Assembly: GCA_946479015.1 (NCBI GenBank) | Contig: CAMLEQ010000066.1 | Location: forward strand, 1 to 12,644 | Length of the DNA: 12,644 bases | Reading direction: 5' to 3' | DNA from: an uncultured Gemmatimonadota bacterium | Lineage (GTDB): Bacteria; Gemmatimonadota; Gemmatimonadetes; Gemmatimonadales; Gemmatimonadaceae | In this document: positions 1 through 12,548 of the stretch, one piece after another | Position numbering within the stretch: the first letter of the stretch is position 1 | How the letters are laid out: each line of letters starts with the position of its first letter | Position numbers and translations under genes: made by a program | Notes under the pieces: model-generated | What the model was told of the DNA's origin: nothing | Database searches by the model: none | What the model saw: the letters and a program-made list of their open reading frames with translations, nothing else

Positions 1-326
1 CCGCGCCGCCCGCCCCCGGCGGGGCGCGGCGCGGGGGTGGCCGCCGGCGCCGCCGGCGCCCCCGCGGGCTCCGGCGTGGGCGGGTTGACGTCCTCGAACT
101 GCACCTGGATCGGCCCCGATTCCTCGGGGCGTAGCAGCGCGATCGATGGCGGCACCGCGGGGAGGAAGATCACCAGCAGCACCCAGAGCAGGCCGAGGCC
201 GATCGCCGTCGTCCACGACCACACGATCGCGCGCCCCTCGGCGTCCGCCAACTCGTAGCGCATGTTGCGGGTGAACGACGTGTCGTCCACCGCCACGCGC
301 CGCGCCCTCACCTGGTCGGCGGCCAT
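1..326 (-). CDS. TonB-like energy transducer, N-terminal part (runs off left edge)
   Basis: The first 108 codons of a membrane-anchored TonB-family-like protein are present; the C-terminus lies outside the window. A polar, basic N-terminus of about 35 residues comes first, then one hydrophobic helix at about 36-57 (IVWSWTTAIGLGLLWVLLVI is its core). A periplasmic stretch follows that becomes rich in Pro and Ala from about residue 80 (NPPTPEPAGAPAAPAATPAP), as in the TonB linker. The ATG at 326 lies one base after the stop of the upstream ExbD gene, with a GGGAG about 9 bases ahead. TonB proteins couple the ExbB-ExbD motor to outer-membrane partners, which fits its place directly after one ExbB and two ExbD genes. 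The N-terminal cytoplasmic segment is longer than in E. coli TonB. The C-terminal TonB fold cannot be seen, so the family call rests on architecture and context. Confidence 0.7.
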   Translation of the reverse strand, partial: MAADQVRARRVAVDDTSFTRNMRYELADAEGRAIVWSWTTAIGLGLLWVLLVIFLPAVPPSIALLRPEESGPIQVQFEDVNPPTPEPAGAPAAPAATPAPRPAGGGRR

Positions 327-327
327 C

Positions 328-873
328 CTACTGCGCTCCCGCCGCCGGCTCCGGGCCGGTGGTCTTGCTCACCTGCAGCGACAGGTTCTTGAACCCCGCC
401 AGCCGCGCCGTCTGCATCATCCGCGCGAGCAGATCGTAGCGCATGCTCCGGTCTCCCTGGATGGCGAGCGGCGTCTCCAGCGGCGCCCCGCGCGGCACGT
501 GCTTCTCCGCGCGGATCGAGTCCGCGGCGCGCACCAGCGCCGCGTAGAGCGGCGGGATGAGCAGCGGCTGCCGCGGATCGTCCGACCGCGCGCGCGCGGC
601 ATCCACCGTGCTCATCACGCGGTGGCCGGCGAGCGTCACCTGCGGCCCGATGCCGAGCGTGAGCTGCTGGAGCGCGGTCGCCCCCACGCGCGACTCGGGG
701 AGCCGCACGCCGGGCACCACCGGCGCGAGCTCGCCCACGGTGGCCGTGGTGAGCGCGAAGAACACGATCGACACGAACGTGTCCACGAGGGGGACGAGGT
801 TGAGCTCCGTGATCCGGAACTTCGCGAACTGCGCGGCGCGCCGTTGCGCGCGCATCTCCCGGGCGCGGCTCAT
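328..873 (-). CDS. ExbD/TolR-family proton-channel protein, second copy
   Basis: A 181-aa inner-membrane protein with the ExbD/TolR layout: a short basic cytoplasmic N-terminus, one transmembrane helix at about 25-47, and a periplasmic domain. The helix carries the family signature ELNLVPLVDTFVSIVFF; Asp31 matches the proton-carrying Asp of ExbD (Asp25) and TolR (Asp23). The C-terminal part (LAIQGDRSMRYDLLARMMQT, about 136-155) matches the helix-strand end of the periplasmic ExbD fold. Between the two lies an extra segment (about 88-130, with DDPRQPLLIPPLYAALVRAA) that its neighbour lacks and that is long for the family. The start lies two bases after the stop of the first ExbD gene. It probably joins that protein around the ExbB pentamer and converts proton flow into movement in the periplasm. 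Confidence 0.9.
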   Translation of the reverse strand: MSRAREMRAQRRAAQFAKFRITELNLVPLVDTFVSIVFFALTTATVGELAPVVPGVRLPESRVGATALQQLTLGIGPQVTLAGHRVMSTVDAARARSDDPRQPLLIPPLYAALVRAADSIRAEKHVPRGAPLETPLAIQGDRSMRYDLLARMMQTARLAGFKNLSLQVSKTTGPEPAAGAQ

Positions 874-875
874 CG

Positions 876-1415
876 CTACTTCCCCGTCCCCACCGGCGCC
901 GCGCCGCGGGCGCGCGTGCCGAGCGAGATCCCCGAGTACTGCGCGAGGCGCAGCCGCTCGAGCACGTGGATGATGTCGTCGTAGCTCACGTCATCCGAGG
1001 GGATGACCAGCACGTCGGAGTTCTGCGGGTACTGCCGCCGGATCTGCGTCATGAGCGCCTGCAAGGTGTCCAGCGACGTGGCGTCGAGCCCATCGATCCG
1101 CCGGCTGAAGCCCCCGGCACCGGAGTGCTCGACGGTCATCGCGGTCCGCTCCAGGCGCACGGCGAGCAGGAGATTGAGCGCGTCCTGCTCCGACTTCACG
1201 CGCGACGCCTGCTCCGGCGTGCTCACCACCACCGGCGGGAGCGAGAGGTCGAACGCGGTGAGCGCCATCAGCGTCGCCCCCTGGTAGGTGAGGAGGCTGA
1301 AGAACACGATGGACGTGAGGATGTCCACGAGCGGGACGAGGTTGATGTTCCCGTGCGCGGTCACCGGCGCGCGCTCGGCGCGCCGCTGGTTCGATCGGCG
1401 AAAGAGCGATGCCAT
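876..1415 (-). CDS. ExbD/TolR-family proton-channel protein, first copy
   Basis: A 179-aa protein with one transmembrane helix (about 26-47) and a periplasmic domain. The helix has NINLVPLVDILTSIVFFSLL with Asp31 at the position of the essential Asp of ExbD/TolR, the same residue number as in the next gene. The C-terminal segment DVLVIPSDDVSYDDIIHVLE followed by RLRLAQYSGISLG is a good match to the end of the ExbD periplasmic domain (strand, D-x-x-V-x-Y helix, strand). It starts 42 bases after the ExbB stop. The sequence just ahead of the ATG is GGGCTGAGCCC rather than a clear Shine-Dalgarno site, so initiation may depend on translation of the gene before it. Two distinct ExbD proteins next to one ExbB suggest a motor with a mixed TolR-like core. 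Confidence 0.92.
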   Translation of the reverse strand: MASLFRRSNQRRAERAPVTAHGNINLVPLVDILTSIVFFSLLTYQGATLMALTAFDLSLPPVVVSTPEQASRVKSEQDALNLLLAVRLERTAMTVEHSGAGGFSRRIDGLDATSLDTLQALMTQIRRQYPQNSDVLVIPSDDVSYDDIIHVLERLRLAQYSGISLGTRARGAAPVGTGK

Positions 1416-1457
1416 GGGCTCAGCCCGCGGGAGAGCGGCGCCGCCGCGCGCGCGCGG

Positions 1458-2102
1458 TCAGCGGTGCCCCAGCCGGACGTCCGGCCGGTCGATCAGCGCG
1501 TTGATGAGCCGCACCTGGAACTCGTCCACCTGCTCGATGATCCCCTCCGCCTGGCTCACGAGATAGGCGTGGGCCACCGAGAGCGGTACGGCGGTGATGA
1601 GGCCGAAGCCGGTGGCGTTCAGGGCGATCGCGATCCCCTGCGCGAGCGCCGCCGAGCGCTCGGCCGCCGCGGCGAGCGCCACGGACGCGAACGCGGCGCG
1701 CAGCCCGAAGATGGTGCCGAGGAGCCCGATGAGCGTGGCGACGTTGGCCAGCATCGGGAGATAGTGCAGGCGGCGCGTGAGGCGCGGGAGCACGCTGAGC
1801 GCCGCGGCATCGGCCACGTTCTGGAGGTCCGCCTCGTCGCGGCTGCGGCTCCGCAGGATGAGGAGGCCCATGTCCGGGAGCACCGCGTTCGACTGCGAGC
1901 ACAGCTTGATCGCGTCCTCGATCTTCCCCGCGCGCACGAGCTGGATGGCCCGCTCGATGAACGCGCGCCCGTTGATCTTGGCGCGGACGACGATCGTGTA
2001 GAATCGCTCGAGGAACACGGCCAGGCCCGCGACGGCCACGATGAGGATCGCATACATCACCGGGCCGCCCGCCCGGAAGTACTCCAGTAGTGTCGTCAGC
2101 AA
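1458..2102 (-). CDS. MotA/TolQ/ExbB-family proton channel
   Basis: A 214-aa inner-membrane protein with three helices, at about 13-33, 113-138 and 156-183, the normal ExbB/TolQ layout and length. Signatures are GGPVMYAIL and FLERFY in helix 1, TLIGLLGTIFGLRAAF in helix 2 and GIAIALNATGFGLITAVPLS in helix 3. Thr130 and Thr164 match the conserved pore threonines (Thr148 and Thr181 of E. coli ExbB). The helix 3 glutamate (Glu176 in E. coli) is replaced by Ile159. The start is a TTG at 2102, chosen because GGAGGA lies six bases upstream; no ATG in this frame precedes it. It forms the stator channel for the two ExbD proteins encoded next, using the proton gradient to drive the complex. Confidence 0.93.
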   Translation of the reverse strand: MLTTLLEYFRAGGPVMYAILIVAVAGLAVFLERFYTIVVRAKINGRAFIERAIQLVRAGKIEDAIKLCSQSNAVLPDMGLLILRSRSRDEADLQNVADAAALSVLPRLTRRLHYLPMLANVATLIGLLGTIFGLRAAFASVALAAAAERSAALAQGIAIALNATGFGLITAVPLSVAHAYLVSQAEGIIEQVDEFQVRLINALIDRPDVRLGHR

Positions 2103-2108
2103 GGCGAG

Positions 2109-2114
2109 TCCTCC
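2109..2114 (-). promoter_or_regulatory. Shine-Dalgarno site that fixes a TTG start (ExbB gene)
   Basis: GGAGGA on the minus strand, six bases before the TTG at 2102. It is a near-perfect anti-16S match at ideal spacing, and supports TTG as the start of the ExbB-like gene although the codon is non-standard. Confidence 0.75.
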
Positions 2115-2136
2115 AGAGGGTTCGCGACGAGAGGGT

Positions 2137-2844
2137 TCAGCGGGGCTTCCGCGCGGTGCTGTCGCGCGGGAGCCGCGTGGTGTCAGCGGGCGCGTGCGGC
2201 CGCCCGAGGGAGTTGACGAGCACTTCGAGCGAGTCCAGCCGCGCGCGGCGGTACTCGAGCTCCTTCAGGAGCTCCTCGATCTCCGCCTGACGCGAGGCGG
2301 AGTCGCTGGCGGAGCGGGGCGTGGGAGCACCCAGCCCGCGCGCCGTCTCGCCGCGGGCCGCCTCGCCGCGCAGCGCGCGCTGGAGCGAGTCGAGCCGCGC
2401 CCGGCGCTCCGCGATCTCGCGGCGCATCGCCTCGGCCTGCGCCGCGCGCGCGGCGGCGGCGGCGCTGTCGCCCGGCGCGACCGGCGCGGCCGCGCTGTCG
2501 CCGGCTGTCGCCGGCTCGGCGGCCACCAGCGCGCCGGGAGTCGAATCCAGCGGCGCGTTGCCGCGTACCTGCCGCCCCGGCACGAGCTGGTACCCCGGCA
2601 TCACCGCCGACCAGAACGAACGGCCGGAGAGCTCGGGGCTCAACACCTGGCGGCTGTACGTCGGCACCTCGCGCGGGCGCACGGTCACCACCTGGGGCGT
2701 GGGCACCTGCCCGTGGATCACGATCGTCTGCGTCCCCTTGGGCGGCGCCTTCCGCCCCTGCTGCTGCGCGACGGCGAGCGCCGGCACGAGCACCAGCGCG
2801 GCGCCGAGCGGCGCGGAGCGCGCCATCCATCCGAGCCTGCGCAT
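2137..2844 (-). CDS. Periplasmic protein with Pro/Arg segment and two RRARLDSL helices, unknown function
   Basis: A 235-aa protein that I do not recognise by name. A signal peptide (about 1-27, core APLGAALVLVPALAVA) precedes a short ordered-looking segment: TIVIHGQVPTPQVVTVRPRE at about 40-59, then SGRSFWSAVMPGYQLVPGR. A low-complexity Ala/Pro/Asp/Ser linker (about 98-135) follows. Two predicted helices carry the same octamer RRARLDSL at 147-154 and 199-206. There is no lipobox and no further membrane segment, so it is probably soluble in the periplasm. The ATG at 2844 overlaps the stop of the 1003-aa TPR gene by one base (TGATG), with GGAGG-rich sequence ahead. Its position between the TPR scaffolds and the ExbB gene suggests a linking part of the same complex; this is inference. 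Confidence 0.85.
   Translation of the reverse strand: MRRLGWMARSAPLGAALVLVPALAVAQQQGRKAPPKGTQTIVIHGQVPTPQVVTVRPREVPTYSRQVLSPELSGRSFWSAVMPGYQLVPGRQVRGNAPLDSTPGALVAAEPATAGDSAAAPVAPGDSAAAAARAAQAEAMRREIAERRARLDSLQRALRGEAARGETARGLGAPTPRSASDSASRQAEIEELLKELEYRRARLDSLEVLVNSLGRPHAPADTTRLPRDSTARKPR
2227..2250 (-). repeat. Second copy of the RRARLDSL octamer
   Basis: Encodes residues 199-206 of the 235-aa protein, matching the copy at 2383-2406. It lies in the C-terminal helix that begins with AEIEELLKELEYRRARLDSL. Confidence 0.6.
2383..2406 (-). repeat. First copy of the RRARLDSL octamer
   Basis: Encodes residues 147-154 of the 235-aa protein. The same octamer is encoded again at 2227-2250 (residues 199-206), with similar DNA. 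Each copy starts an amphipathic helix, suggesting an internal duplication of a docking helix. Confidence 0.6.
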
Positions 2845-5800
2845 CACCGGTTCCCTCCCTCGCGTCCGTTCGCCGGCGCGCCGTCGGCGCTCGCGGCCGG
2901 ATGCGCATCCACGCTCCCCTGGAGCGCGGCCCGCGCGCGGTCCACCCACGGATTGCCGATCCCTTCCCCCTGCGCCTTGTCCACCAGCGCCTGCCACGTG
3001 GCGCGCGCCGCGGTGTAGTACTGCTCCGCCTGCTGCGCCGCGCCCTGCTTCGCGGCCGCCTCCTGCTGCGGCGTGAGATCCTTCGGGAGCTGCACGTTCT
3101 TCAGGAACTCGCCGTACTCCCACTGCGCGAGCCCCACGTAGTAGGACGACGCCGCGAGCCACTCCGGCGCGCCGGCGGCGATCGACTTGGTGAAGTGCGC
3201 GGACATCGCTTGCAGCAGTTGCCGCTTCCGCGCCGACAGCCGCTCGATCCCGCGCCGCGTGAGATTGCCGCGCGTCGGGATCACCAGTTGGAGCGGTTGG
3301 TACTGGGCGAACAGCGCCGCGCCGGCGCGGAACTCGCGCTCGCCCGTCCGCTCGGCGCACGTCCCCTTCAACTCCTCCGTGGGGTGCGCGCACAGGCGCG
3401 TCAGCTCGGCGCTCACCGCCGTCGTGTCCCCCGCCGCCCGGAGCAGCGCCACGCGCGCCTGCTGCGCGGCGCCGGTGCGCGGATCGCGCGGGAACGCGGT
3501 GGCGAACGTGCCGTAGGCGCGCGCCGCGTCGGCGGTGTCCGCCGCCTGGAGGTAGGTGAGCGCCGCGTTGTGCTGCGCGTCGGCGGCGCGACGATCCCTC
3601 GGGTACGCCGCCGCGAACGCCTCGTACGCGGCCGCCGCGTCCTTCGGCCGCCCGAGCGAATCGAGCATCACCGCGCGCCGCACCATCGCGTCGGCGCGCC
3701 CACTCCAGTCGGGGTTGTCGCGGATGAGCGCATCGAGCGCCTGCACCGCCTCGTCGTGCCGCCCCAGGTCGGCGAGGAGCTGCGTCTCCAGCGACTGGTA
3801 CTGCACGCGGTACTGGTAGCGCGGGTACTGCGTCACCAGCCGGTCCGCCAGCTCGAGCGCGCGCTGCTTCGCGGCCACACTCGCCATCGCGTCGCCGCGC
3901 GCGCGCGCGGCGCTGTCGGCGAGCACGTACGTCTCCACCGCGTTGCGGAGCGCGTCCGGCGCCTTCTCCGACGTCGGGTTGCGGTCGGCGTACGCCACGT
4001 ACACCTCTTCCGCCGCGCGCCGGTAGTCCCCCGACTTCACCAGCGAGTCGCCGAACGACACCGCCGCCGCGTTCCGGATCACGTTGATCGAGTCGGCGAG
4101 CTTTCCGCGCCCGGAGTGCGCCGCCACCGTCTGCGCCTGCTCCCACTGCGCCTGCGCCTCGGTGTACTTCCCCTGCTTGTACAGCGCGTCACCGATCAGC
4201 TTCTGCGCCGTGGGCGTGTAGCGGTCGGTCGGGTACGTCTGCGCGTACGTCTGGAACGTCTGCGCCACCACGTCCCACCGCCCCGCCTCGGAGGCGCGCT
4301 TCCCCTTCTCGATCAGCGCCTTCGGTGCCACGTCGCTCTGCGGGTGGGCGGCCACGAAGTGGTCCACGGCCGCGAACAGCGAGTCCTGCGCCGCGCGGTC
4401 GGCGCGGTCGTGCACCACCGCCGAGTCGAATGCCACGATCGCGTTCTGCCCCGCGCGCGCGCCCAGGTCGCCATTCCCGCCGCTCGCTCCGTTCCCCGCG
4501 AGGGCGTACGCCGCGCGCGAGTACTCGATGCCCGCGCGGAAGTACTCGCCCTGCCCGAACAGCGCCTCGCCGTGCAGGAAGTCCACGCGCTGCGCGCTGT
4601 CCGACGTGGCGAACTCCGTCATGTAGCGCCCGTAGAGCTGCGCCGCCGTGGCGAAGCGCGCCTTGTCCTTCTCCTTCTGCGCGCGCGCGAGCTCGTACTG
4701 CGCGGCCTGGCGCAGCATCGCCTCGCGCACCGCGTTCGCCGAGTCCACGAGCGAGGGGTTCGCCTGCGCCCACGCCGAGCCGGGAGCGAACCGGTCCACC
4801 AGCTCGAGCCGCGCCTCCTGCGCCTTCTCCGGCTCGAGCACGCGGTTCTGGTAGATGTCGATGATCTCGCGCTGCACGGCGAGCGCCGACGAATCGGTGG
4901 GCGCCTCCGCCTGCACCGCCTTGTACGCCTCCACCGCCTTGGCGAAGTCTCCCTGATCGCGCAGGCTGGCGGCCACGCGCCGGAGCACGGGGAGCTTCAC
5001 GCTCGCGGCGTCGTGCGTGGCGAAGTAGCGGGAGGCTGCCTCGGCCCCCCCCACCTGCGTGAACGCCACCGCCATGTACTCGATCGCGTCGCCGCGCAGC
5101 CCGAGGCGCGCCTGCCGCTCGGGGCTGAGCTGGTCGTACTCCGACACCAGCCGCCCGAACACATCCACCGCCTCCGCGTACTCCGGCTGGTTCGCCTGGG
5201 TGGCCTGGTTGTAGTAGCTCCACCCGAGCTTGTAGAGCGCCAGGAAGTAGATGTCGCCGGCCGGCGGCGCGGTGCGCGTGGCGCTGTCGTAGGCCTGCGC
5301 CGCCTTCACGAACCACCCCCGCCGCGCGTCCCCTCGCGCCGCGGACGCCAGCTCGAAGCGCGCGTCGCCGAGGCGGAAGAACGACTCGCCGCGGTACGAC
5401 GACTGCGGCTTGGAGGTGACCAGCTCGAACATCGCCGCCGCGTCGGCCCAGCGCTGGTCGGAGAAGTAGAGCGTCCCCAGCGTGTACGCCGCCGCATCCA
5501 CGTGCTCGAAGTCCGGGTACTTCTTCACCAGCTCCTCGTAGCGCGCGATCGCCGGCGCGTAATCGGGGCGCGCCGGCACGTCGCCGCCGGCGCGCTGCGC
5601 GGCCGCGAACGCATCGTCGGCGCGGCGCACGAGCAGCTCGCCGAGCTGGTACAGCGCGTTCGGCCGCAGGCGGCTCTCCGGGTAGCGCGCCACGAAGGCG
5701 GAGAGCTTGTCGATCGCGACGTCGCGCGCCGAACCGTCGCGCGCCGGGGAAGCGGCGGCGAGCGTGGGCGCCGCCGCGGGCGCGGCGCTCTGGGCGGCGG

Positions 5801-5855
5801 CGGGCGCCGCGAGCAGCAGCGCCAGCGCGGGATAGAGTCTGCGCACGGGGCTCAT
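2844..5855 (-). CDS. Large periplasmic TPR protein (AglT/GltE-like architecture)
   Basis: A 1003-aa protein with a signal peptide (about 1-22, ALALLLAAPAAAQ) and then helical repeats over nearly its whole length. TPR-type units are clear, for example YTLGTLYFSDQRWADAAAMF (124-143), LYKLGWSYYNQ (207-217), KALIEKGKRASEAGRWDVVA and DALYKQGKYTEAQAQWEQA. The C-terminus is different: EYGEFLKNVQLPKDLTPQQE (about 913-932) followed by a helix and NPWVDRARAAL. From memory this resembles the end of large myxobacterial TPR proteins of the AglT type, but no alignment was done. The gene starts inside the end of the 765-aa gene (ATGA overlap) with no clear Shine-Dalgarno site, so translation is probably coupled. 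TPR arrays hold multi-protein complexes together; here it is likely a scaffold between the motor and the outer-membrane barrels. Confidence 0.9.
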   Translation of the reverse strand: MSPVRRLYPALALLLAAPAAAQSAAPAAAPTLAAASPARDGSARDVAIDKLSAFVARYPESRLRPNALYQLGELLVRRADDAFAAAQRAGGDVPARPDYAPAIARYEELVKKYPDFEHVDAAAYTLGTLYFSDQRWADAAAMFELVTSKPQSSYRGESFFRLGDARFELASAARGDARRGWFVKAAQAYDSATRTAPPAGDIYFLALYKLGWSYYNQATQANQPEYAEAVDVFGRLVSEYDQLSPERQARLGLRGDAIEYMAVAFTQVGGAEAASRYFATHDAASVKLPVLRRVAASLRDQGDFAKAVEAYKAVQAEAPTDSSALAVQREIIDIYQNRVLEPEKAQEARLELVDRFAPGSAWAQANPSLVDSANAVREAMLRQAAQYELARAQKEKDKARFATAAQLYGRYMTEFATSDSAQRVDFLHGEALFGQGEYFRAGIEYSRAAYALAGNGASGGNGDLGARAGQNAIVAFDSAVVHDRADRAAQDSLFAAVDHFVAAHPQSDVAPKALIEKGKRASEAGRWDVVAQTFQTYAQTYPTDRYTPTAQKLIGDALYKQGKYTEAQAQWEQAQTVAAHSGRGKLADSINVIRNAAAVSFGDSLVKSGDYRRAAEEVYVAYADRNPTSEKAPDALRNAVETYVLADSAARARGDAMASVAAKQRALELADRLVTQYPRYQYRVQYQSLETQLLADLGRHDEAVQALDALIRDNPDWSGRADAMVRRAVMLDSLGRPKDAAAAYEAFAAAYPRDRRAADAQHNAALTYLQAADTADAARAYGTFATAFPRDPRTGAAQQARVALLRAAGDTTAVSAELTRLCAHPTEELKGTCAERTGEREFRAGAALFAQYQPLQLVIPTRGNLTRRGIERLSARKRQLLQAMSAHFTKSIAAGAPEWLAASSYYVGLAQWEYGEFLKNVQLPKDLTPQQEAAAKQGAAQQAEQYYTAARATWQALVDKAQGEGIGNPWVDRARAALQGSVDAHPAASADGAPANGREGGNR

Positions 5856-8149
5856 CGCCGGGGCGGGTTGGACGACGAGGCGCCGGACGCCGGGGCGCTT
5901 CCCGCGCCCCCCGCGCCGCCGGCCGCTCCCGTCGTGGTGCCGGCGGCGCCGTTCGGCTCCGTCGCGCGGAAGAAGGCGGAGCTGGCGGAACCGTAGTCCG
6001 CCTGCTCGCGGTCGCGCCCGAGCTGTGCCAGCATCCCCGACGCGCGCGCGCGCAGCTCGCTCTCCACGAGCGCCACGAGCTGCCCCTCCGCCGCCGCCTG
6101 ACGCGACTGCGCGGTCACGAGCGCGCCGCGCATGGCCTTCGTGCCCTCGGACTCCGAGGCGCGCAGCCCGGCGAGCGCACCGGTCACCACCTGATCGTCC
6201 GCGGCCAGCACCTGCTGCGTCTCGTCGTGCAGCGCCCGCGCGCGCGCCAGCCGCCCGGCCAGCGAGTCGCGGAGCGCGAACACGGGGTGGCGACCGATGG
6301 CCGAGTCGAGCCCGGCATCCACGTCGCCCGCCATCCGCGCATACGTCTCCGCCGTCTGCCGCTCGGTATCCAGGATCTCCCCCTCCGCCGTCCCGGCGCT
6401 CGCGCCGAGCGCGGCCCGCACGCTGTCGATCATGGCCACGTTCTCCGCCGCCATCCTCCGCGTGGCGTCGAGCTGCGTCGCGAGCGCCTGGCGCACGCGG
6501 CCGCGCGTCCGGTCGATCACCACGCGCATCGCCGTGAGCGAGTCCTGCGTGGCGGCGAGGATCCGCGCGTTCGCGGCCAGCGACTCGTTCCCCGTCCGCA
6601 CCAACCCTTGCAGCTCCTCGAGCGCGGCGATCTTCGCCGCGTGCGCGCCCACCTGCTCGTCCAACCGGTAGCGCGCCAGCGCGACATCCACGTCGGCGGC
6701 GCGCAGCGCGGCGGCGCGCTCGGCGTACCCCGCCACGGCGCCGCTGTCCGTGGCGTGCACGAACATCAGTCGCCGCGGGAACTCGGCGCCGAGCGTGGGG
6801 CCCACGCTGTCGAGACGCGCGCCGACGTCGGTGATCGACACGATGCGGGGCGCCACCCGCGACGGCGGCGCGCTTGCGCCAACGAACGCGGCGAGCACCG
6901 TCGCCGCATCGGCGCCGGCCGCGTCGGGGAGCGCCACCGTCTTGCCGGCCATCGGGTCGCCCACGAAGGCGATCCCCGCCGCGCGCGCCGCCACCAGGGC
7001 GCGCGCCGCTCCCGCGAGCGCGGTCGTCGCGCGCGCCTGCAGCGTCGTGACCTCGGCGGCGATCGAGTCGCCCATCGCCTGGAAGTAGCGCTCCGCCGCC
7101 TCCGACTGCCCGGCCTCGAGCAGCGACTGCCCCACCATCAACCGGGCCTCATCGCGCTGCGGCAGCTCGGGGTAGCGCGAGACGAAGTCGCCGAAGGTGT
7201 GCGCGGCGGCATCGAGCGCGCCGCTCCGGTACTGCGCCCACCCCTTCACCAGCAGCGCCTGCGCCCCCAGCCCGCTCGCGGGAGACACGCCGTCGGCGTA
7301 CGTGAGGGCGGCATCGTACTGCGCGCTCTCGTACGCCAGCTCCGCCGCCGTGAGGCGCACCTGGTCGCCGAACGCGCCGGTGGCGATCCCGGCGAGCGGC
7401 CGCAGCGAGTCGAGCGCCGCCGCCACGCGCGCGGTGTCTCCCTGGAGCACCGTGAGCGCCTCCATGTACTGCGCGTACGGCGCGTACGGACCGCCGGCGG
7501 CCCGCGCCATCGCGAACGCGCCGAGCGCGGCGGGGAAGTCCCTCGTGTGGTACGCGGCCAGCCCCGCCACCAGCTGCGCCAGCGGCCGGTCCCCCGCCAG
7601 CGCCGGCTTCGCGGCCAGCTCGCGCGCGGCCGCGTAGTCGCCGCGCTGGTACGCGTCGAGCATGAGCTGCGAGGCGATCACCCCCTCGTAGCGCGCGCCG
7701 CCGGGGGACGCGGAGAGCTCCCGCGCCGAGGCGCGGAACGCCTCGCCCATCCCGAGCCGGTCGTAGCTCTCGGCCAGCAGGAAGAGCAGATCGTCGCGCG
7801 AGCGGAGCGCGGCGGCCGATGCGCGCCCGCTGTCCGCGACGGCCGAGTCGGGCGCGCCACCCGGCGACGGTGTTGCACCCGGCACGGAAGCGGGATTTGC
7901 GGATGATTGCGCGGCGAGCGCGGAGCGCAGCCACTCCAGCCGCTGGAGCGCCGAGAGCGGGCGCCCCGCGGTGAGATCGAACAGCGCCGCGCGCAGCTCC
8001 GCATCCACGCCGCGCGCCTGGTCGGCCTGCGGCGTGACCGCGGGCGCCTGACGGCGAGCGGCCGTGTCGGACGCGGTTGGCTGCTGCGCGACGAGCGGCA
8101 TCGGCGCCGCCAGCGCCGCCACCGTGAGCGCGCGCGCGAGGATCCCCAT
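5852..8149 (-). CDS. Periplasmic TPR plus long coiled-coil protein
   Basis: A 765-aa protein. The start at 8149 (MGILARALTVAALAAPMPLV) gives a clean signal peptide cleaved near AQQ at 21-23. Residues about 120-360 are TPR-like (LLFLLAESYDRLGMGEAFRA, LLVKGWAQYRSGALDAAAHT, RLMVGQSLLEAGQSEAAERY). A non-repeat segment (about 390-465) follows, then a long helical, coiled-coil-like part (about 475-730). The last 35 residues are a Gly/Ala/Ser/Thr tail. It starts eight bases after the 236-aa gene and its stop overlaps the next start as ATGA. The frame stays open upstream to about 8851, but that part runs across the real gene 8158-8868 and lacks a signal. It is likely a second scaffold paired with the 1003-aa protein; no enzyme domain is visible. 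Confidence 0.88.
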   Translation of the reverse strand: MGILARALTVAALAAPMPLVAQQPTASDTAARRQAPAVTPQADQARGVDAELRAALFDLTAGRPLSALQRLEWLRSALAAQSSANPASVPGATPSPGGAPDSAVADSGRASAAALRSRDDLLFLLAESYDRLGMGEAFRASARELSASPGGARYEGVIASQLMLDAYQRGDYAAARELAAKPALAGDRPLAQLVAGLAAYHTRDFPAALGAFAMARAAGGPYAPYAQYMEALTVLQGDTARVAAALDSLRPLAGIATGAFGDQVRLTAAELAYESAQYDAALTYADGVSPASGLGAQALLVKGWAQYRSGALDAAAHTFGDFVSRYPELPQRDEARLMVGQSLLEAGQSEAAERYFQAMGDSIAAEVTTLQARATTALAGAARALVAARAAGIAFVGDPMAGKTVALPDAAGADAATVLAAFVGASAPPSRVAPRIVSITDVGARLDSVGPTLGAEFPRRLMFVHATDSGAVAGYAERAAALRAADVDVALARYRLDEQVGAHAAKIAALEELQGLVRTGNESLAANARILAATQDSLTAMRVVIDRTRGRVRQALATQLDATRRMAAENVAMIDSVRAALGASAGTAEGEILDTERQTAETYARMAGDVDAGLDSAIGRHPVFALRDSLAGRLARARALHDETQQVLAADDQVVTGALAGLRASESEGTKAMRGALVTAQSRQAAAEGQLVALVESELRARASGMLAQLGRDREQADYGSASSAFFRATEPNGAAGTTTGAAGGAGGAGSAPASGASSSNPPRR

Positions 8150-8157
8150 GTGCGCGC

Positions 8158-8868
8158 TCAGAACGGCGTGGTGCCCTTGCTCGTCCACGTGCTCGGCACG
8201 AGCTGCCCGCCGCGCATCGTGAACTGGACGTACGTCACCATCTCGCTCGGCGCCGTCACGTTCAGCCCCTGCACCACCGGCTGCCCGTTCACGGTCACGC
8301 TCACCGTGATGGTGTGCGTGGTGGGGAGCACCTCCGACCGGTAGAGCTGGTCCACCGCGCCCTGCTGCAGCGCCTGGACCGCGACCGGCGTGTAGGTGCG
8401 CGTGGATGCCGAGGCATCGTCCACCTTGAGATCCGCCGCGCCCAGCCCCGCCGCCGCCCCCGAGTCGGCGCGCAGCAGCACCACCAGCACCGCGCCCGTG
8501 CGCCGCCGCACCGCGTCGCCGAGCGCCTTCATCCGGTCGCGCTGGGCCAGCATGTTGTCCTGCGCCGAGGCCAGCGTGCCGTCGAGCTGCAGCAGCGCGT
8601 TCTGCTCGGAGCTCATGAGCAGCATGTGCGCGCGCTTCTCCATCGTCTGCGCGAGCACGTTCTCGATCCGGGCCTCGAGCTGTACCCGCTGGCTCCGAAG
8701 CTGGCTGAGCTGGTCCTGCGTCTCCTGGAGTTGCTTGACGAGCGCCGCGCGGCGCGCGTCGTACGCCTGCTGCTGCGTCACCGAATCCGCCTGGCTCTGC
8801 GCGCGTGCGGCGCCAGGCGCCAGCATCGCCAGCAGGAGGACCGCCCACCACCTACGCGAAAGTCGCAT
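8158..8868 (-). CDS. Periplasmic coiled-coil protein with C-terminal beta-type domain, unknown function
   Basis: A 236-aa protein of unrecognised family. A signal peptide (RRWWAVLLLAMLAPGAARAQ) is followed by a Gln-rich coiled coil at about 30-118 (ALVKQLQETQDQLSQLRSQR and onwards). The C-terminal part (about 122-236) looks beta-rich, with TGAVLVVLLRADSG, THTITVSVTVNGQPVVQGLN and EMVTYVQFTMRGGQLV, and could be a small beta-sandwich. I chose the ATG at 8868. An in-frame GTG at 8877 would add three residues (239 aa), and neither has a strong Shine-Dalgarno site. It follows the second barrel gene by about 30 bases and precedes the 765-aa gene by eight. By position it may be the periplasmic contact between the barrels and the TPR scaffolds; this is inference. 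Confidence 0.85.
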   Translation of the reverse strand: MRLSRRWWAVLLLAMLAPGAARAQSQADSVTQQQAYDARRAALVKQLQETQDQLSQLRSQRVQLEARIENVLAQTMEKRAHMLLMSSEQNALLQLDGTLASAQDNMLAQRDRMKALGDAVRRRTGAVLVVLLRADSGAAAGLGAADLKVDDASASTRTYTPVAVQALQQGAVDQLYRSEVLPTTHTITVSVTVNGQPVVQGLNVTAPSEMVTYVQFTMRGGQLVPSTWTSKGTTPF

Positions 8869-8898
8869 GATCTTCACTCGATATGGGGCGCGCCTGCG

Positions 8899-10095
8899 TC
8901 AATCCTCCGGCGGATTCAGCTCGCTCGGCGGCGTGTTCTGCTCCAACCGGCGCAGCCGCTCCTCGAGTCGCTGCAGCGCCTCGCGCTCCGAGCGCAACTC
9001 CTGTTCCGCTTGCGCCCGCCGCTGCTCCAGCTCGAGAAGGCTCTGGGCCTGGTACCGGTCGATCTCCAGCTCGAGCGATGCGATGCGCTGCTGGCGCGCC
9101 GAGATCTCGCGCTGCAGCCCCTCCCGCTCCTGCTCCAGCTCCGCGATGCGGTCCTTGAGGATGTCGCCGCGCAGGAGCCCCAGCGCGTTGCTCTGCCAAC
9201 CGAGCGTGAACGCGAACTTGTCGTAGTTGAACGTCGTCCGCGCCGAGTCCCGCGACCCGGCCCCCATCTCCGTCCAGTACACCCCCGCCTGCAGCCCGCG
9301 GTAGTCGAACACCGCGCCGCTGTTGAAGTCCCACGCGTTGTTCTCGACGAGGAACGACAACACGCTGCGCGACGACGGGTACACATCCATCTTCACCCCG
9401 CCGAACACCCCGCCCGTGGAGTGGCGCGCGTAGGCTTTCCCCAGCCCGCCGTCATCGGAGAACAGTCCGTTCCCGTAGCCCACCGTGAAGCTGAGCCCCA
9501 CGTGCGGCATCCCCGCGCCGAAATCGGAGAGCATGAACGACTTCGTGGCCGCGCCGTACACCGTCTCGCCGGTGGAGAAGCCCTGATGGAGCGAGTCGGC
9601 CACGTGCCGCCGGCTCGGACTCGATGGCGTCCCCGACACGAGGCTGTAGCCGAGATTGAAGCGGTCCACCTTGGAGTAGGGGCCCACGTTGCGCAGCCCC
9701 ACCGCGACGCTGGGAATCCACCCCGCGATCCCCGTGCGCCCGCGGAAGTCCTCCTCGTTCAGCAGCAGCGCGCGGCCGAAGAAGCCCCACTCCGGCGCGT
9801 CGGAGAACACCGACAGGCCGATCTCCGCGCGCCCGAACAGCGACGTGGAGACCGCCATGTTCGAGTTCAGCCCGTGCCCGATGCCGAGCCCCTGGGAGAA
9901 GTTCGATCCCTTGATCGATTTGGCGGAGAAGCCGATCCCGAAGTCGCCGGTGACGGGCGACACCCAGGCCACCGGCACATCCACCAGCCCGGAGCCCCAG
10001 TACTCCGTCTGCGGGTACGTCTGCTGCGCGCCGGCCGCGCTGGCGGTCGTGAGCGCGAGCGCGGTGATCACCGTGCAGCGTTGCGTGAAGGACAT
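8899..10095 (-). CDS. Outer-membrane beta-barrel with C-terminal coiled coil, second paralogue
   Basis: A 398-aa protein with a signal peptide (about 1-24, ending ASAAGAQ). A barrel-like region with alternating Gly, aromatic and polar residues spans about 28-308, starting YWGSGLVDVPVAWVSPVTGD. A strongly charged coiled coil follows at about 311-386 (DRIAELEQEREGLQREISAR, ELRSEREALQRLEERLRRLE). It is clearly paralogous to the 398-aa product of 10116-11312: both share G-[TS]-GL-[IV]-D-[IV]-PVAWVSP and DDGGLG-[RK]-AY. The start GLxDxPxA faintly recalls YjbH-type outer-membrane proteins. AGAGAGG-like sequence (AGAGAGG) eight bases before the ATG at 10095 decides the start; an ATG at 10119 overlaps the previous stop but has no site of its own. 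The coiled coil should point into the periplasm to bind scaffolds. Confidence 0.88.
   Translation of the reverse strand: MSFTQRCTVITALALTTASAAGAQQTYPQTEYWGSGLVDVPVAWVSPVTGDFGIGFSAKSIKGSNFSQGLGIGHGLNSNMAVSTSLFGRAEIGLSVFSDAPEWGFFGRALLLNEEDFRGRTGIAGWIPSVAVGLRNVGPYSKVDRFNLGYSLVSGTPSSPSRRHVADSLHQGFSTGETVYGAATKSFMLSDFGAGMPHVGLSFTVGYGNGLFSDDGGLGKAYARHSTGGVFGGVKMDVYPSSRSVLSFLVENNAWDFNSGAVFDYRGLQAGVYWTEMGAGSRDSARTTFNYDKFAFTLGWQSNALGLLRGDILKDRIAELEQEREGLQREISARQQRIASLELEIDRYQAQSLLELEQRRAQAEQELRSEREALQRLEERLRRLEQNTPPSELNPPED
9959..9975. repeat. 17-base identity shared by the tandem barrel genes, copy 1
   Basis: GACACCCAGGCCACCGG on the plus strand, also found at 11158-11174. It encodes the shared PVAWVSP segment and is a relic of the tandem duplication or of strong selection on this strand. 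Confidence 0.7.
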
Positions 10096-10103
10096 CGCGC
10101 GTG

Positions 10104-10110
10104 CCTCTCT
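10104..10110 (-). promoter_or_regulatory. Shine-Dalgarno site of the second barrel gene
   Basis: AGAGAGG on the minus strand, eight bases before the ATG at 10095. It lies inside the longer reading from the ATG at 10119, so it favours the downstream start. Confidence 0.55.
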
Positions 10111-10115
10111 CGGAT

Positions 10116-11312
10116 TCATCGCGACGGGGGCGTGGAGCCGCCCGGCGGCGGCGTGGTGGGCTTGTCCTCTCCCTGCTGCAGCGCCTTCAGGCGCTCCTCG
10201 GCGCGCTGGATGGCGTCGCGCTCCTCCTGGATCTGGCTCTCGAGCTGCTCGCGGCGCTTCGCGACCTCGGCCAGCTCCGCCCCCTGCGACTTGCGCAGCA
10301 GGTCCTCCAGCAGCGCGATGCGCCGCTCGCGCTGCCCCAGCTCCGTGCGGAGGCGCCCCTGCTCGCGCTCCAGCTCGGCCACGCGGGAGCGCAGCACCGT
10401 GCCGGCGGCGATGTCGTGCAGGTTCCCGCTGTAGCCGAGCGACACGTTGAGCTTCGTGTAGTTGTACACGGTGTACAGCGGCCCCTTCGTCGGCGACTTC
10501 CCCCCCTCCTCCAGCTCCGTCCCGTAGATGCCGAGCGAGAGCCCGCGCCACGTCCCGACGACGCCCGCGTTCCAGTCCCACCCGTCGTTCTCCGCGAGGA
10601 AATCGATGCGCGTGTTGCGCGACGGGTGCACCGCGTACCGCCCACCGAGGAAGAGCCCCTGGGCGATCTGCCCCTTGTCGTTGTACGCGCGACCGAGGCC
10701 GCCATCATCGGCGAACAGGCCGCTCCCCACGCCCACGCTGAAGCTCGCCGAGCCGGAGCCCACGGCCACCGACTTCGTCGCCACCCCGTACACCGAGGGC
10801 GCGGTCTTGAAGCCGCGCGCGTACGACGCGGTCGCGTCGCCGCCGCCGACGGGATTCACATCGTGCCCCACGAGGAAGCGGTCCTCGTGGTCGAAGGAGC
10901 CGAGGTTGCGGAAGCCGACCGCGATCGCGGGCCACGCATGGTGCGCCTGCTCCTTGAGGAGCAGCGCCTGCCCGAACACGCCGATCTCGGGATTCTGGCT
11001 GTACACCGACACGCCGAGGGAGAAGCGCCCCGCCCAGTGCGTGTCGATGGAGAAGTTGGTGTTCCAGCGCGAGGCGAAGTTGAGCGCCGACTCCCCCGTG
11101 GCGTTGTACGGAATCTGCTTCGCCGACGACTGCACCCAGATGTCGCTCGAGTTGGGTGACACCCAGGCCACCGGGATGTCGATGAGCCCCGTGCCGAAAT
11201 CCAGCGTGGCGGGATACAGATCCTGCTGCTGCGCGGAAAGCGGGGAGGCGGCGATCAGCGCCGCTCCGAGCGCCATGGCGGTCAGAGCGACCCCGGACCG
11301 CATCGTGCGCAT
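10116..11312 (-). CDS. Outer-membrane beta-barrel with C-terminal coiled coil, first paralogue and first gene of the operon
   Basis: A 398-aa protein with a signal peptide (about 1-27, ending ASPLSA before QQQ). A barrel-like region spans about 31-300, opening with LDFGTGLIDIPVAWVSPNSS and containing ADDGGLGRAY at 201-210. A coiled coil follows at about 303-380 (VLRSRVAELEREQGRLRTEL, KRREQLESQIQEERDAIQRA), then a short Pro-rich tail. The sequence is divergent from, but collinear with, the next gene product of the same length. The ATG at 11312 has GGAGGA three bases ahead. The frame is open further upstream to 11777, but that part has no signal peptide and crosses the promoter region. Ending in a coiled coil rather than a C-terminal beta-strand with an aromatic residue is unusual for a barrel. 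Tandem outer-membrane barrels also occur in the Glt system (GltA and GltB). Confidence 0.88.
   Translation of the reverse strand: MRTMRSGVALTAMALGAALIAASPLSAQQQDLYPATLDFGTGLIDIPVAWVSPNSSDIWVQSSAKQIPYNATGESALNFASRWNTNFSIDTHWAGRFSLGVSVYSQNPEIGVFGQALLLKEQAHHAWPAIAVGFRNLGSFDHEDRFLVGHDVNPVGGGDATASYARGFKTAPSVYGVATKSVAVGSGSASFSVGVGSGLFADDGGLGRAYNDKGQIAQGLFLGGRYAVHPSRNTRIDFLAENDGWDWNAGVVGTWRGLSLGIYGTELEEGGKSPTKGPLYTVYNYTKLNVSLGYSGNLHDIAAGTVLRSRVAELEREQGRLRTELGQRERRIALLEDLLRKSQGAELAEVAKRREQLESQIQEERDAIQRAEERLKALQQGEDKPTTPPPGGSTPPSR
11158..11174. repeat. 17-base identity shared by the tandem barrel genes, copy 2
   Basis: Same 17 bases as 9959-9975, at the matching point of the first barrel gene (PVAWVSP). 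Confidence 0.7.
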
Positions 11313-11604: not shown

Positions 11605-11637
11605 TTGACGACGCTGTGGTGGCCCCCAAGATAGAGT
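11605..11637 (+). promoter_or_regulatory. Weak candidate promoter for the plus-strand lipoprotein gene
   Basis: TTGACG (11605-11610) and TAGAGT (11632-11637) are separated by 21 bases, longer than the usual 16-18. The -10 element matches four of six consensus bases. It lies about 68 bases before the start codon and is the best candidate I can find. Confidence 0.25.
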
Positions 11638-11692
11638 GAGGAGTGACAGTCCCGCCATCCGCCGCCCCGACCCTGGCCTGGTGCGGCCCATC

Positions 11693-11698
11693 GGGAGG
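11693..11698 (+). promoter_or_regulatory. Shine-Dalgarno site of the 125-aa lipoprotein gene
   Basis: GGGAGG six bases before the ATG at 11705. It fixes this start. Confidence 0.7.
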
Positions 11699-11704
11699 CT
11701 AGCC

Positions 11705-12082
11705 ATGCATCTGGTGCAACGCCTGCTCGTGCTGCCCGTCCTGCTGCTGTGCGCGGCGTGCGCGCATCGCGCCTCACCCGAACCCGCCGCGCCCGCCGCG
11801 CGTTCCACGCTCCACGTGGACAATCACCACTGGCTCGACGTGGACATCTTCGTCGTGCACGATGGACAGCGCAGCCGGCTCGGGACCGTCACCGCCACGG
11901 CGGCCCGGGACTTCGTCTTCCCCCGCGAGATGCTCGGATCGCTGGGCGAGGTACGGCTCGTCGCGGATCCCGTGGGATCACAGGACGCGATCATCACCGA
12001 TCTGATCGTCGTGAAGCCAGGTACCGCGGTGACGTGGACGCTCGAGAGCAGCCTCCAGCGCTCGAGCCTCGCCGTCTATTAG
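11705..12082 (+). CDS. Small putative lipoprotein, Gemmatimonadota-type, unknown function
   Basis: A 125-aa protein. The N-terminus is a lipoprotein-like signal (VQRLLVLPVLLLCAAC) with the acceptor Cys at 19; the -3 position is Cys rather than Leu, so the lipobox is imperfect. The mature part (about 35-125) looks all-beta: STLHVDNHHWLDVDIFVVHD, RSRLGTVTATAARDFVFPRE, VRLVADPVGS, then DLIVVKPGTAVTWTLES. I associate this N-x-x-x-x-D-x-x-[IV] / RLG-x-V / VxPG pattern with small uncharacterised secreted proteins of Gemmatimonadota, from memory only. It is transcribed away from the large operon with its own ribosome site, so it is probably unrelated to the machine. It converges on the 143-aa lipoprotein gene. 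Confidence 0.85.
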   Translation: MHLVQRLLVLPVLLLCAACAHRASPEPAAPAARSTLHVDNHHWLDVDIFVVHDGQRSRLGTVTATAARDFVFPREMLGSLGEVRLVADPVGSQDAIITDLIVVKPGTAVTWTLESSLQRSSLAVY

Positions 12083-12116: not shown

Positions 12117-12548
12117 TCACTTCGGCGAGCCGCCCGTGCCGCCGCTGGACGGCGCGCCGGTCGCGTCGCCGGAGATCCCCTTGATCGCGAACACGCCGGC
12201 GACGAGCAATCCCGCGATCAGCCCGCTGCGCCAGGTCGACAGCTTCTTCTGCTGCACCGTGGCGATCGCCCCCCGCGGCAGCGACACCGACTCTCCCTTC
12301 CAGAACTGCTCGTCGCCATCGCGCTTCGCGACCTCGCTCACCGAGACCGCCACGGCGGTGTCGGTGCTCTGGAGCAGCCGCCCATCCACGGACATCACGT
12401 TCGGGCCGAGATAGCGCGCGAGCTCGCCGGACCCATCGTCCGTGAGCTGCACGTGCACGCGCGTCCCCGGATCCGGCGCCGTCGTGGCCAGCGGCACCGT
12501 GACGTAGCAGCCGCAGAGCAGCAGACTCGCGAACGGAAGAATGCGCAT
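12117..12548 (-). CDS. Small putative lipoprotein with a C-terminal hydrophobic helix, unknown function
   Basis: A 143-aa protein. The signal MRILPFASLLLCGC has a lipobox-like LCGC with Cys14 as the acceptor. The middle part is beta-rich: GTRVHVQLTDDGSGELARYL, GPNVMSVDGRLL, TAVAVSVSEVAKRDG, then FWKGESVSLPRGAIATVQQK. A basic patch (KKLSTWRSG) precedes a hydrophobic helix (about 109-124, LIAGLLVAGVFAIKG) and a Gly/Ser tail. I recall similar uncharacterised proteins (GxRVxVxLT ... WxGExVxLP ... LSxxRS) in Gemmatimonadota; this was not searched. The ATG at 12548 is chosen because GAGG lies five bases ahead and the signal begins there; an upstream extension to 12593 would mask the signal. Confidence 0.85.
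   Translation of the reverse strand: MRILPFASLLLCGCYVTVPLATTAPDPGTRVHVQLTDDGSGELARYLGPNVMSVDGRLLQSTDTAVAVSVSEVAKRDGDEQFWKGESVSLPRGAIATVQQKKLSTWRSGLIAGLLVAGVFAIKGISGDATGAPSSGGTGGSPK

What the first reader, a model, noticed from the sequence alone, without database searches (positions are those of the whole stretch)
1..11312. Ten-gene operon for a proton-driven trans-envelope machine resembling Agl-Glt
Seen: one ExbB, two ExbD, a TonB-like protein, two large TPR proteins, two coiled-coil periplasmic proteins and two outer-membrane barrels in one unbroken operon with overlaps. Known: the Myxococcus Agl-Glt gliding/sporulation machine has one TolQ-like (AglR) and two TolR-like (AglQ, AglS) motor proteins, periplasmic TPR proteins, the barrels GltA and GltB, and TonB-like linkers. 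Inferred: this operon is a compact, possibly independent version. In Myxococcus the parts are spread over several loci; here they sit together. No TolB, Pal or TonB-dependent receptor is present, which argues against Tol-Pal or nutrient uptake. The cargo or output (motility, capsule or lipoprotein movement) is unknown.
Basis: partly seen in the sequence, partly recalled or inferred. Interest (0 to 1): 0.82.

Follow-up and report, generated by a model that had tools for sequence, protein, structure and literature searches.

The report
Proton-driven envelope machine in Gemmatimonadota

Summary
The ten genes are real, on the minus strand, at most 42 bases apart. The window is Gemmatimonadaceae. 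In 24 related loci (23 assemblies) no gene is out of order; ten loci show all ten genes; in L021 the barrel pair stands alone. At least 25 of 395 sampled genomes of the phylum carry it. In seven carriers it is a further motor beside a Tol-type locus (7 of 7) and a TonB-ExbBDD locus (6 of 7). Strongest link to Agl-Glt: complete relatives of gene 10, cut in the window, carry the AgmX/PglI domain over NCBI's cut-off and match the C-terminal third of GltG. This domain models like TonB/TolA C-termini and, over the cut-off, occurs in 25 genomes, 24 of them operon carriers by TPR2. Against full membership: no FHA domain, no Glt-named match for the other parts, barrels and motor untestable against Glt/Agl, TonB-dependent receptors near at least 13 of 24 loci. 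One-cluster core complexes are already described in other phyla, so 'compact' is not new. Verdict: a new variant of the Agl-Glt/Nfs kind; force transmission likely, gliding only possible.

The parts
10116..11312 (-). gene 1, outer-membrane barrel A, 398 aa, about 12 strands, C-terminal helix (about 10176-10400), Pro-rich tail
   Evidence: (562 database proteins at E<=0.001)
8899..10119 (-). gene 2, outer-membrane barrel B, 406 aa, paralogue of barrel A (38% identity)
8158..8868 (-). gene 3, periplasmic coiled-coil protein (236 aa) with a conserved C-terminal part
   Evidence: (17 sequences, window included)
5852..8149 (-). gene 4, periplasmic TPR protein 1 (765 aa), weak YbgF/YfiO match; fused to gene 5 in several relatives
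2844..5855 (-). gene 5, periplasmic TPR protein 2 (1003 aa), YbgF-type TPR repeats
2137..2844 (-). gene 6, exported protein (235 aa) with a strongly conserved segment close to the mature N-terminus and, in close relatives, a charged coiled-coil-like region
2650..2724 (-). conserved segment of gene 6 (core VPTPQVVTVRPREVP); proposed docking peptide for the gene 10 C-terminal domain (inference)
   Evidence: 15 sequences
1458..2102 (-). gene 7, ExbB/TolQ/MotA-family proton channel subunit (214 aa, TTG start)
876..1415 (-). gene 8, ExbD/TolR-family subunit 1 with the invariant Asp of NLVPLVD
328..873 (-). gene 9, ExbD/TolR-family subunit 2, also with the invariant Asp
1..326 (-). gene 10, GltG-type/TonB-like transducer: short cytoplasmic N-terminus, one TM helix, start of linker; cut by the window end

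Best explanation
The operon encodes a dedicated proton-driven trans-envelope force machine of the Agl-Glt/Nfs kind. Genes 7-9 form an ExbB/ExbD-type motor with two different ExbD subunits (5:2 make-up inferred from the family). Gene 10, an inner-membrane protein whose C-terminal domain is predicted to fold like TonB/TolA, takes up the movement and reaches across the periplasm (coupling inferred). It pulls on the periplasmic TPR/coiled-coil assembly of genes 3-6, perhaps through the conserved N-terminal segment of gene 6 and, in relatives, through a downstream lipoprotein with a similar domain (inferred). The load is the pair of outer-membrane barrels with their C-terminal helices in the periplasm (inferred). 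The output is movement or gating of outer-membrane parts against the cell wall; surface displacement such as gliding or polymer wrapping is possible but not shown.
Confidence: 0.6

Rival explanations
1. A specialised TonB system: motor and gene 10 energise transport through barrels A/B or through the SusC/SusD-type receptor encoded nearby, with the TPR proteins as scaffold.
For: Gene 10 has a TonB/TolA-like predicted C-terminal fold. A receptor cluster (c8; two members confirmed in Pfam) lies in the fetched flanks of 11 of 24 loci, and plug domains lie 4-5 kb downstream on the contigs of two more (G360 and G365, the contigs of L003 and L004). A SusD gene was confirmed in L005. Barrel A resembles FapF, KdgM and NanC channels. 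Some further AgmX proteins lie near a plug domain (G002:C54, G039:C3, G316:C105).
Against: A separate TonB-ExbB-ExbD-ExbD locus exists in 6 of 7 carriers, none found in G002. In the loci read no receptor lies between operon genes, and in L001, L005-L007 and L013 an opposite-strand gene separates them. No receptor of that cluster was seen in the fetched flanks of L009, L018, L019/L028, L021-L023/L030 or L024/L031, and none among eight large flanking proteins of such loci tested in Pfam (flanks are incomplete). Carriers hold 17-52 plug domains each (19 of 19), so nearness is weak evidence.
Confidence: 0.2
2. A Tol-Pal-like system that keeps outer membrane and wall together during division, with barrels in place of Pal.
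For: TPR2 matches YbgF over its cut-off (5.4e-37) and the ExbB matches TolQ best among NCBIfam models (8.9e-17, below cut-off); one remote solo barrel carries an OmpA wall-binding domain (L062).
Against: A Tol-type locus exists in 7 of 7 carriers, with TolB-, Pal- and CpoB-like genes visible in five and tested by Pfam in one. The operon was found in only 25 of 395 genomes. No TolB or Pal in the operon.
Confidence: 0.12
3. A genuine gliding motor orthologous to Agl-Glt, steered by MglA (a stronger form of the best explanation, so the odds overlap).
For: AgmX/GltG match; an MglA homologue (PDB 6hjh, 6.2e-83) in 26 of 26 carriers, beside a roadblock gene in 12 of 12; MreB in 12 of 12. In four genomes of one sublineage a large putative lipoprotein with Ig-like Big_2 domains, a possible adhesin, lies just upstream of barrel A on the same strand (L018, L022, L113 by Pfam, L114 by similarity).
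Against: MglA is also in 287 of the other 369 genomes. The Ig-like gene was not seen upstream in L016, L019, L115 or L021. No listed title or abstract start reports gliding in Gemmatimonadota (full texts not read). GltI, GltH, GltK, CglB and AglZ not tested; GltJ matched only weakly through the shared domain (4.9e-4).
Confidence: 0.2

Closest known systems
Agl-Glt gliding machine of Myxococcus xanthus (AglRQS, GltA-K)
   Same: One TolQ-type and two TolR-type motor proteins; GltG-type transducer with the AgmX/PglI C-terminal domain; periplasmic TPR proteins; paralogous barrel pair (PMC4488436, passages)
   Different: All in one operon; gene 10 lacks FHA; barrels of about 400 aa with C-terminal helices against 256 and 275 aa (Table 1 of PMC3169522); no gene recognised as GltF, GltH, GltI, GltJ or GltK in the operon
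Nfs spore-coat machine of Myxococcus xanthus (NfsA-H, works with AglRQS)
   Same: Paralogues of GltA-H in a single cluster (PMC3858216, passages)
   Different: The nfsA-H cluster has no motor genes; here the motor is built in
Core complex AglRQS + GltC/D/E/G of Gammaproteobacteria, Geobacter and Fibrobacter
   Same: Motor, transducer and TPR proteins clustered, function unknown (PMC3169522, sections 6, 7, 11, 12 read)
   Different: The paper reports GltA and GltB only from Myxococcales and Bdellovibrionales; here a barrel pair belongs to the operon; Gemmatimonadota are not named in the sections read
TPR + TolQ + two TolR + vWA transducer loci of the PVC group (PMC12204202, passages)
   Same: Same motor make-up with a TPR gene, proposed force transducer of unknown function
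   Different: Transducer has a vWA fold; here a TonB/TolA-like fold
Tol-Pal and ExbBD-TonB
   Same: Motor family and transducer fold
   Different: Tol-type locus separate in 7 of 7 carriers, TonB-type in 6 of 7; no TolB, Pal or receptor in the operon

Membership tests
Agl-Glt/Nfs | one TolQ-type plus two distinct TolR-type subunits with the proton Asp | tested here: met
   the feature is shared with other motors
Agl-Glt/Nfs | GltG-type transducer: TM helix plus AgmX/PglI C-terminal domain | tested here: met
   two complete relatives (L017, L024) over the NF033768 cut-off, partial GltG match; the window holds only the N-terminal 107 aa
Agl-Glt/Nfs | cytoplasmic FHA domain of GltG | tested here: not met
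   no FHA match in two complete relatives; short N-terminus
Agl-Glt/Nfs | motor subunits within the AglRQS clade | not testable with these tools
   no Agl sequences could be obtained; only separation from the genomes' own TolQ and ExbB shown
Agl-Glt/Nfs | GltA/GltB-type paralogous barrels | tested here: inconclusive
   paralogous pair present, kinship to GltA/B could not be tested
Agl-Glt/Nfs | GltC, GltD, GltE TPR proteins | tested here: inconclusive
   TPR proteins present; no Glt-named model matched, library content for these names unknown
Agl-Glt/Nfs | MglA switch and MreB in the genome | tested here: met
   26 of 26 and 12 of 12 carriers; MglA also in 287 of 369 others, so not specific
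Agl-Glt/Nfs | gliding or spore-coat phenotype | not testable with these tools
   needs a cultured carrier
Tol-Pal | TolB and Pal in the locus | tested here: not met
   no such match among the ten genes; separate Tol locus with both in G003
ExbBD-TonB | TonB C-terminal family match over cut-off | tested here: not met
   TIGR01352 15.6 and 16.4 bits against 27.1; PF03544 0.22 or none; predicted fold is nevertheless TonB/TolA-like
ExbBD-TonB | conserved TM His for motor docking | tested here: inconclusive
   His in 2 of 15 gene 10 sequences that cover the position; present in 15 of 15 TonB/TolA-type proteins of carriers

The most novel reading that the evidence does not exclude
A complete surface-displacement machine of Agl-Glt design, from proton channel to outer-membrane barrels, packed in one operon in Gemmatimonadota, in which the TonB-fold tip of gene 10 grips a TonB-box-like segment at the N-terminus of gene 6 and drags coiled-coil-tailed barrels, in one sublineage together with an Ig-like surface lipoprotein as adhesin, along the wall, giving gliding or polymer transport in a phylum not known for it.
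Probability: 0.22. Interest if true: 0.85.

Novelty: new variant of a known kind. Interest (0 to 1): 0.57.

Why it matters
[quoted passage not shown] A version in which motor, transducer, periplasmic scaffold and barrels sit in one conserved operon of about 11 kb would allow the whole machine to be modelled, co-expressed and imaged, and would show which parts form the minimum. It would also place a barrel-bearing machine of this kind outside the two groups, Myxococcales and Bdellovibrionales, from which Luciano 2011 reports GltA and GltB, which bears on how gliding machines arose from a core of unknown function.

Tried and rejected
Tol-Pal and ordinary TonB readings were tested and lowered. 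Barrels as universal porins of the phylum: rejected; strong matches (E<=1e-79) in 23 of 395 genomes, the other 63 of the 86 matching genomes at 7e-16 or weaker; of 16 remote loci fetched (out of these 63 genomes) a barrel was re-found in 13 and no other operon gene was found in any, though my crude gene finder gave no barrel in the other three. MglA as a specific partner: rejected. Plasmid searches with gene 10 and ExbB found nothing. PDB sequence searches gave only coiled-coil noise for the barrel profile and nothing useful for gene 10. The ExbB protein search listed 120 of 993 hits; rows with an organism name are Gemmatimonadota except one labelled Elarobacter, so it yielded no Agl sequences. 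An early idea that gene 10 lacks the TM His everywhere was wrong and was dropped. My notebook says 14 of 16 for the remote loci; the count is 13.
Full report
WHAT IS THERE. The operon runs on the minus strand from 11312 to the window end. Ten genes follow each other with spacings of -4 to +42 bases: barrel A, barrel B, coiled-coil protein, TPR1, TPR2, gene 6, ExbB, ExbD1, ExbD2 and the start of a TonB-like gene. Pfam confirms ExbB, both ExbDs and TPR2; TPR1 is weak; barrels and genes 3 and 6 match no family over its cut-off. The barrels are paralogues (38% identity). The model of barrel A has about 12 strands and a helix of about 75 residues at the C-terminus (mean pLDDT 64.5). Its nearest solved shapes are FapF, KdgM, NanC and autotransporter barrels, which supports an outer-membrane barrel but shows no function.

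WHO HAS IT. The barrel A search found 562 database proteins; those with organism names among the 120 listed are all Gemmatimonadaceae or Gemmatimonadota. One scan of genome contigs gave 24 loci, all titled Gemmatimonadaceae, Gemmatimonadetes or Gemmatimonadota; L007 and L017 are two contigs of one assembly, so 23 assemblies. No order violation occurs; neighbour pairs are seen 12 to 21 times each, as contigs allow. Ten loci show all ten genes (L002-L006, L008, L009, L012, L019, L023); L007 and L013 show only barrel A; in L021 the barrel pair is not followed by the rest. These loci were picked by the barrel. In 395 genomes drawn from the phylum, TPR2 is found in 25 (E<=1e-10), the barrel profile strongly in 23 (E<=1e-79) and AgmX/PglI over cut-off in 25. 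TPR2 and AgmX share 24 genomes; G232 has TPR2 without AgmX, G379 has AgmX and barrels without TPR2. G244, G363 and G393 have TPR2 and AgmX but no barrel match; in G244 the operon starts at gene 3 with another gene on the opposite strand before it (L107), while the G393 contig ends there (L110). So the barrels look separable from the core, as Luciano 2011 describes for Group A and Group B genes (PMC3169522, sections 7 and 11). These figures are lower bounds: the first look of the tool scores few candidates and many genomes are fragmented.

MORE PARTS OUTSIDE THE WINDOW. Downstream of gene 10 in relatives lies a small protein with a domain of the same type: ten matches at E<=1e-59 from nine genomes, seven of them the sequences the profile was built from; nine of ten show a lipobox by a loose pattern. 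It was not found by that profile in the fetched stretches of G005 and G006, though G005 has a sub-cut-off AgmX match there. Fourteen of the 25 AgmX-bearing genomes have two or three over-cut-off AgmX matches on different contigs; those read are exported proteins with Pro-rich linkers or short proteins. TPM, LemA and M23-peptidase genes follow in L025. In one sublineage a large putative lipoprotein with Ig-like Big_2 domains lies directly upstream of barrel A (L018, L022, L113 by Pfam; L114 by similarity), a possible adhesin; it was not seen upstream in L016, L019, L021 or L115.

NOT THE CELL'S OTHER MOTORS. G001-G007 hold two to four ExbB-family genes. Besides the operon there is a Tol-type locus in 7 of 7 (TolB-, Pal- and CpoB-like genes visible in five; contig ends cut the other two) and a TonB-ExbB-ExbD-ExbD locus in 6 of 7, judged by eye from sequence and order. 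Pfam was run on G003 only; there the second TonB-like gene had no match. The fourth gene of G004 lies beside genes I read as flagellar. In a 19-row tree the operon ExbB forms its own clade with support 100/100.

RESULTS AGAINST. A TonB-dependent receptor cluster lies in the fetched flanks of 11 of 24 loci (L001, L002, L005, L006, L007, L010-L014, L020; two members tested in Pfam), and plug domains lie 4-5 kb downstream on the contigs of L003 and L004: at least 13 of 24. None lies between operon genes, and carriers have 17-52 plug domains each. MglA is in 26 of 26 carriers but also in 287 of 369 other genomes. The attempt to find long AgmX proteins failed, so no comparison with myxobacterial sequences was possible beyond NCBI's models.

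MECHANISM. Shown by sequence: motor family, proton Asp in both ExbDs, AgmX/GltG domain in relatives, TPR proteins, barrel pair, conserved order. Predicted: barrel and TonB-like folds. Inferred: gene 10 couples motor to scaffold; genes 3-6 pass the force to the barrels; TPR1 and TPR2 work as one unit, since they form one reading frame in L012, L019, L023 and L024. Gene 6 has a segment near its mature N-terminus that is almost unchanged in 15 sequences. Short strands near the N-terminus are how TonB-dependent receptors and TolB meet such domains (recalled knowledge), so this is my candidate docking site; it is untested.

WHAT IT IS CALLED. It works most like Agl-Glt/Nfs. I do not file it as a full member: the FHA feature is not met, and motor and barrel kinship are untested. 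Papers: PMC3169522 (abstract, sections 6, 7, 11, 12), PMC4488436, PMC3858216 and PMC12204202 (passages), PMC13104615 (passages and section 7). The searches listed no title or abstract start that joins Gemmatimonadota with this machine; (AglRQS with Gemmatimonad) found no paper; full texts of the others were not read for this.

Noticed in passing
window 11636-12082 (+) and 12117-12548 (-): A small lipoprotein-like gene stands convergent between the operon and another conserved lipoprotein-like gene; in L001, L005-L007 and L013 the latter follows a SusC/SusD-type pair (L005 tested in Pfam, the others by similarity cluster).
   Followed up: partly
L018 6548-9772, L022 7018-9798, L113 1737-4772, L114 1939-5124 (-): Large putative lipoprotein with Ig-like Big_2 domains just upstream of barrel A in one sublineage; candidate surface adhesin or cargo.
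   Followed up: partly
L062-L077: Remote solo relatives of the barrels occur in other genomes of the phylum without the operon; one (L062) carries a C-terminal OmpA domain, L074 and L069 sit beside cytochrome c maturation genes.
   Followed up: partly
L012, L019, L023, L024 (also L015, L018 at contig edges): TPR1 and TPR2 are fused into one reading frame of 1511-1720 aa in the four complete cases.
   Followed up: partly
L107 (G244), L110 (G393), L111/L112 (G379): Operon without a barrel match, and a barrel pair apart from the rest: the barrels look like a separable module.
   Followed up: partly
L094-L098, L100, L104-L106, L109: Additional AgmX-domain proteins in operon-bearing genomes; those in L094-L096 lie near a TonB-dependent receptor plug.
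   Followed up: partly
L093 1300-2595 (-): Close MglA homologue next to a roadblock (MglB-like) gene; common across the phylum.
   Followed up: yes
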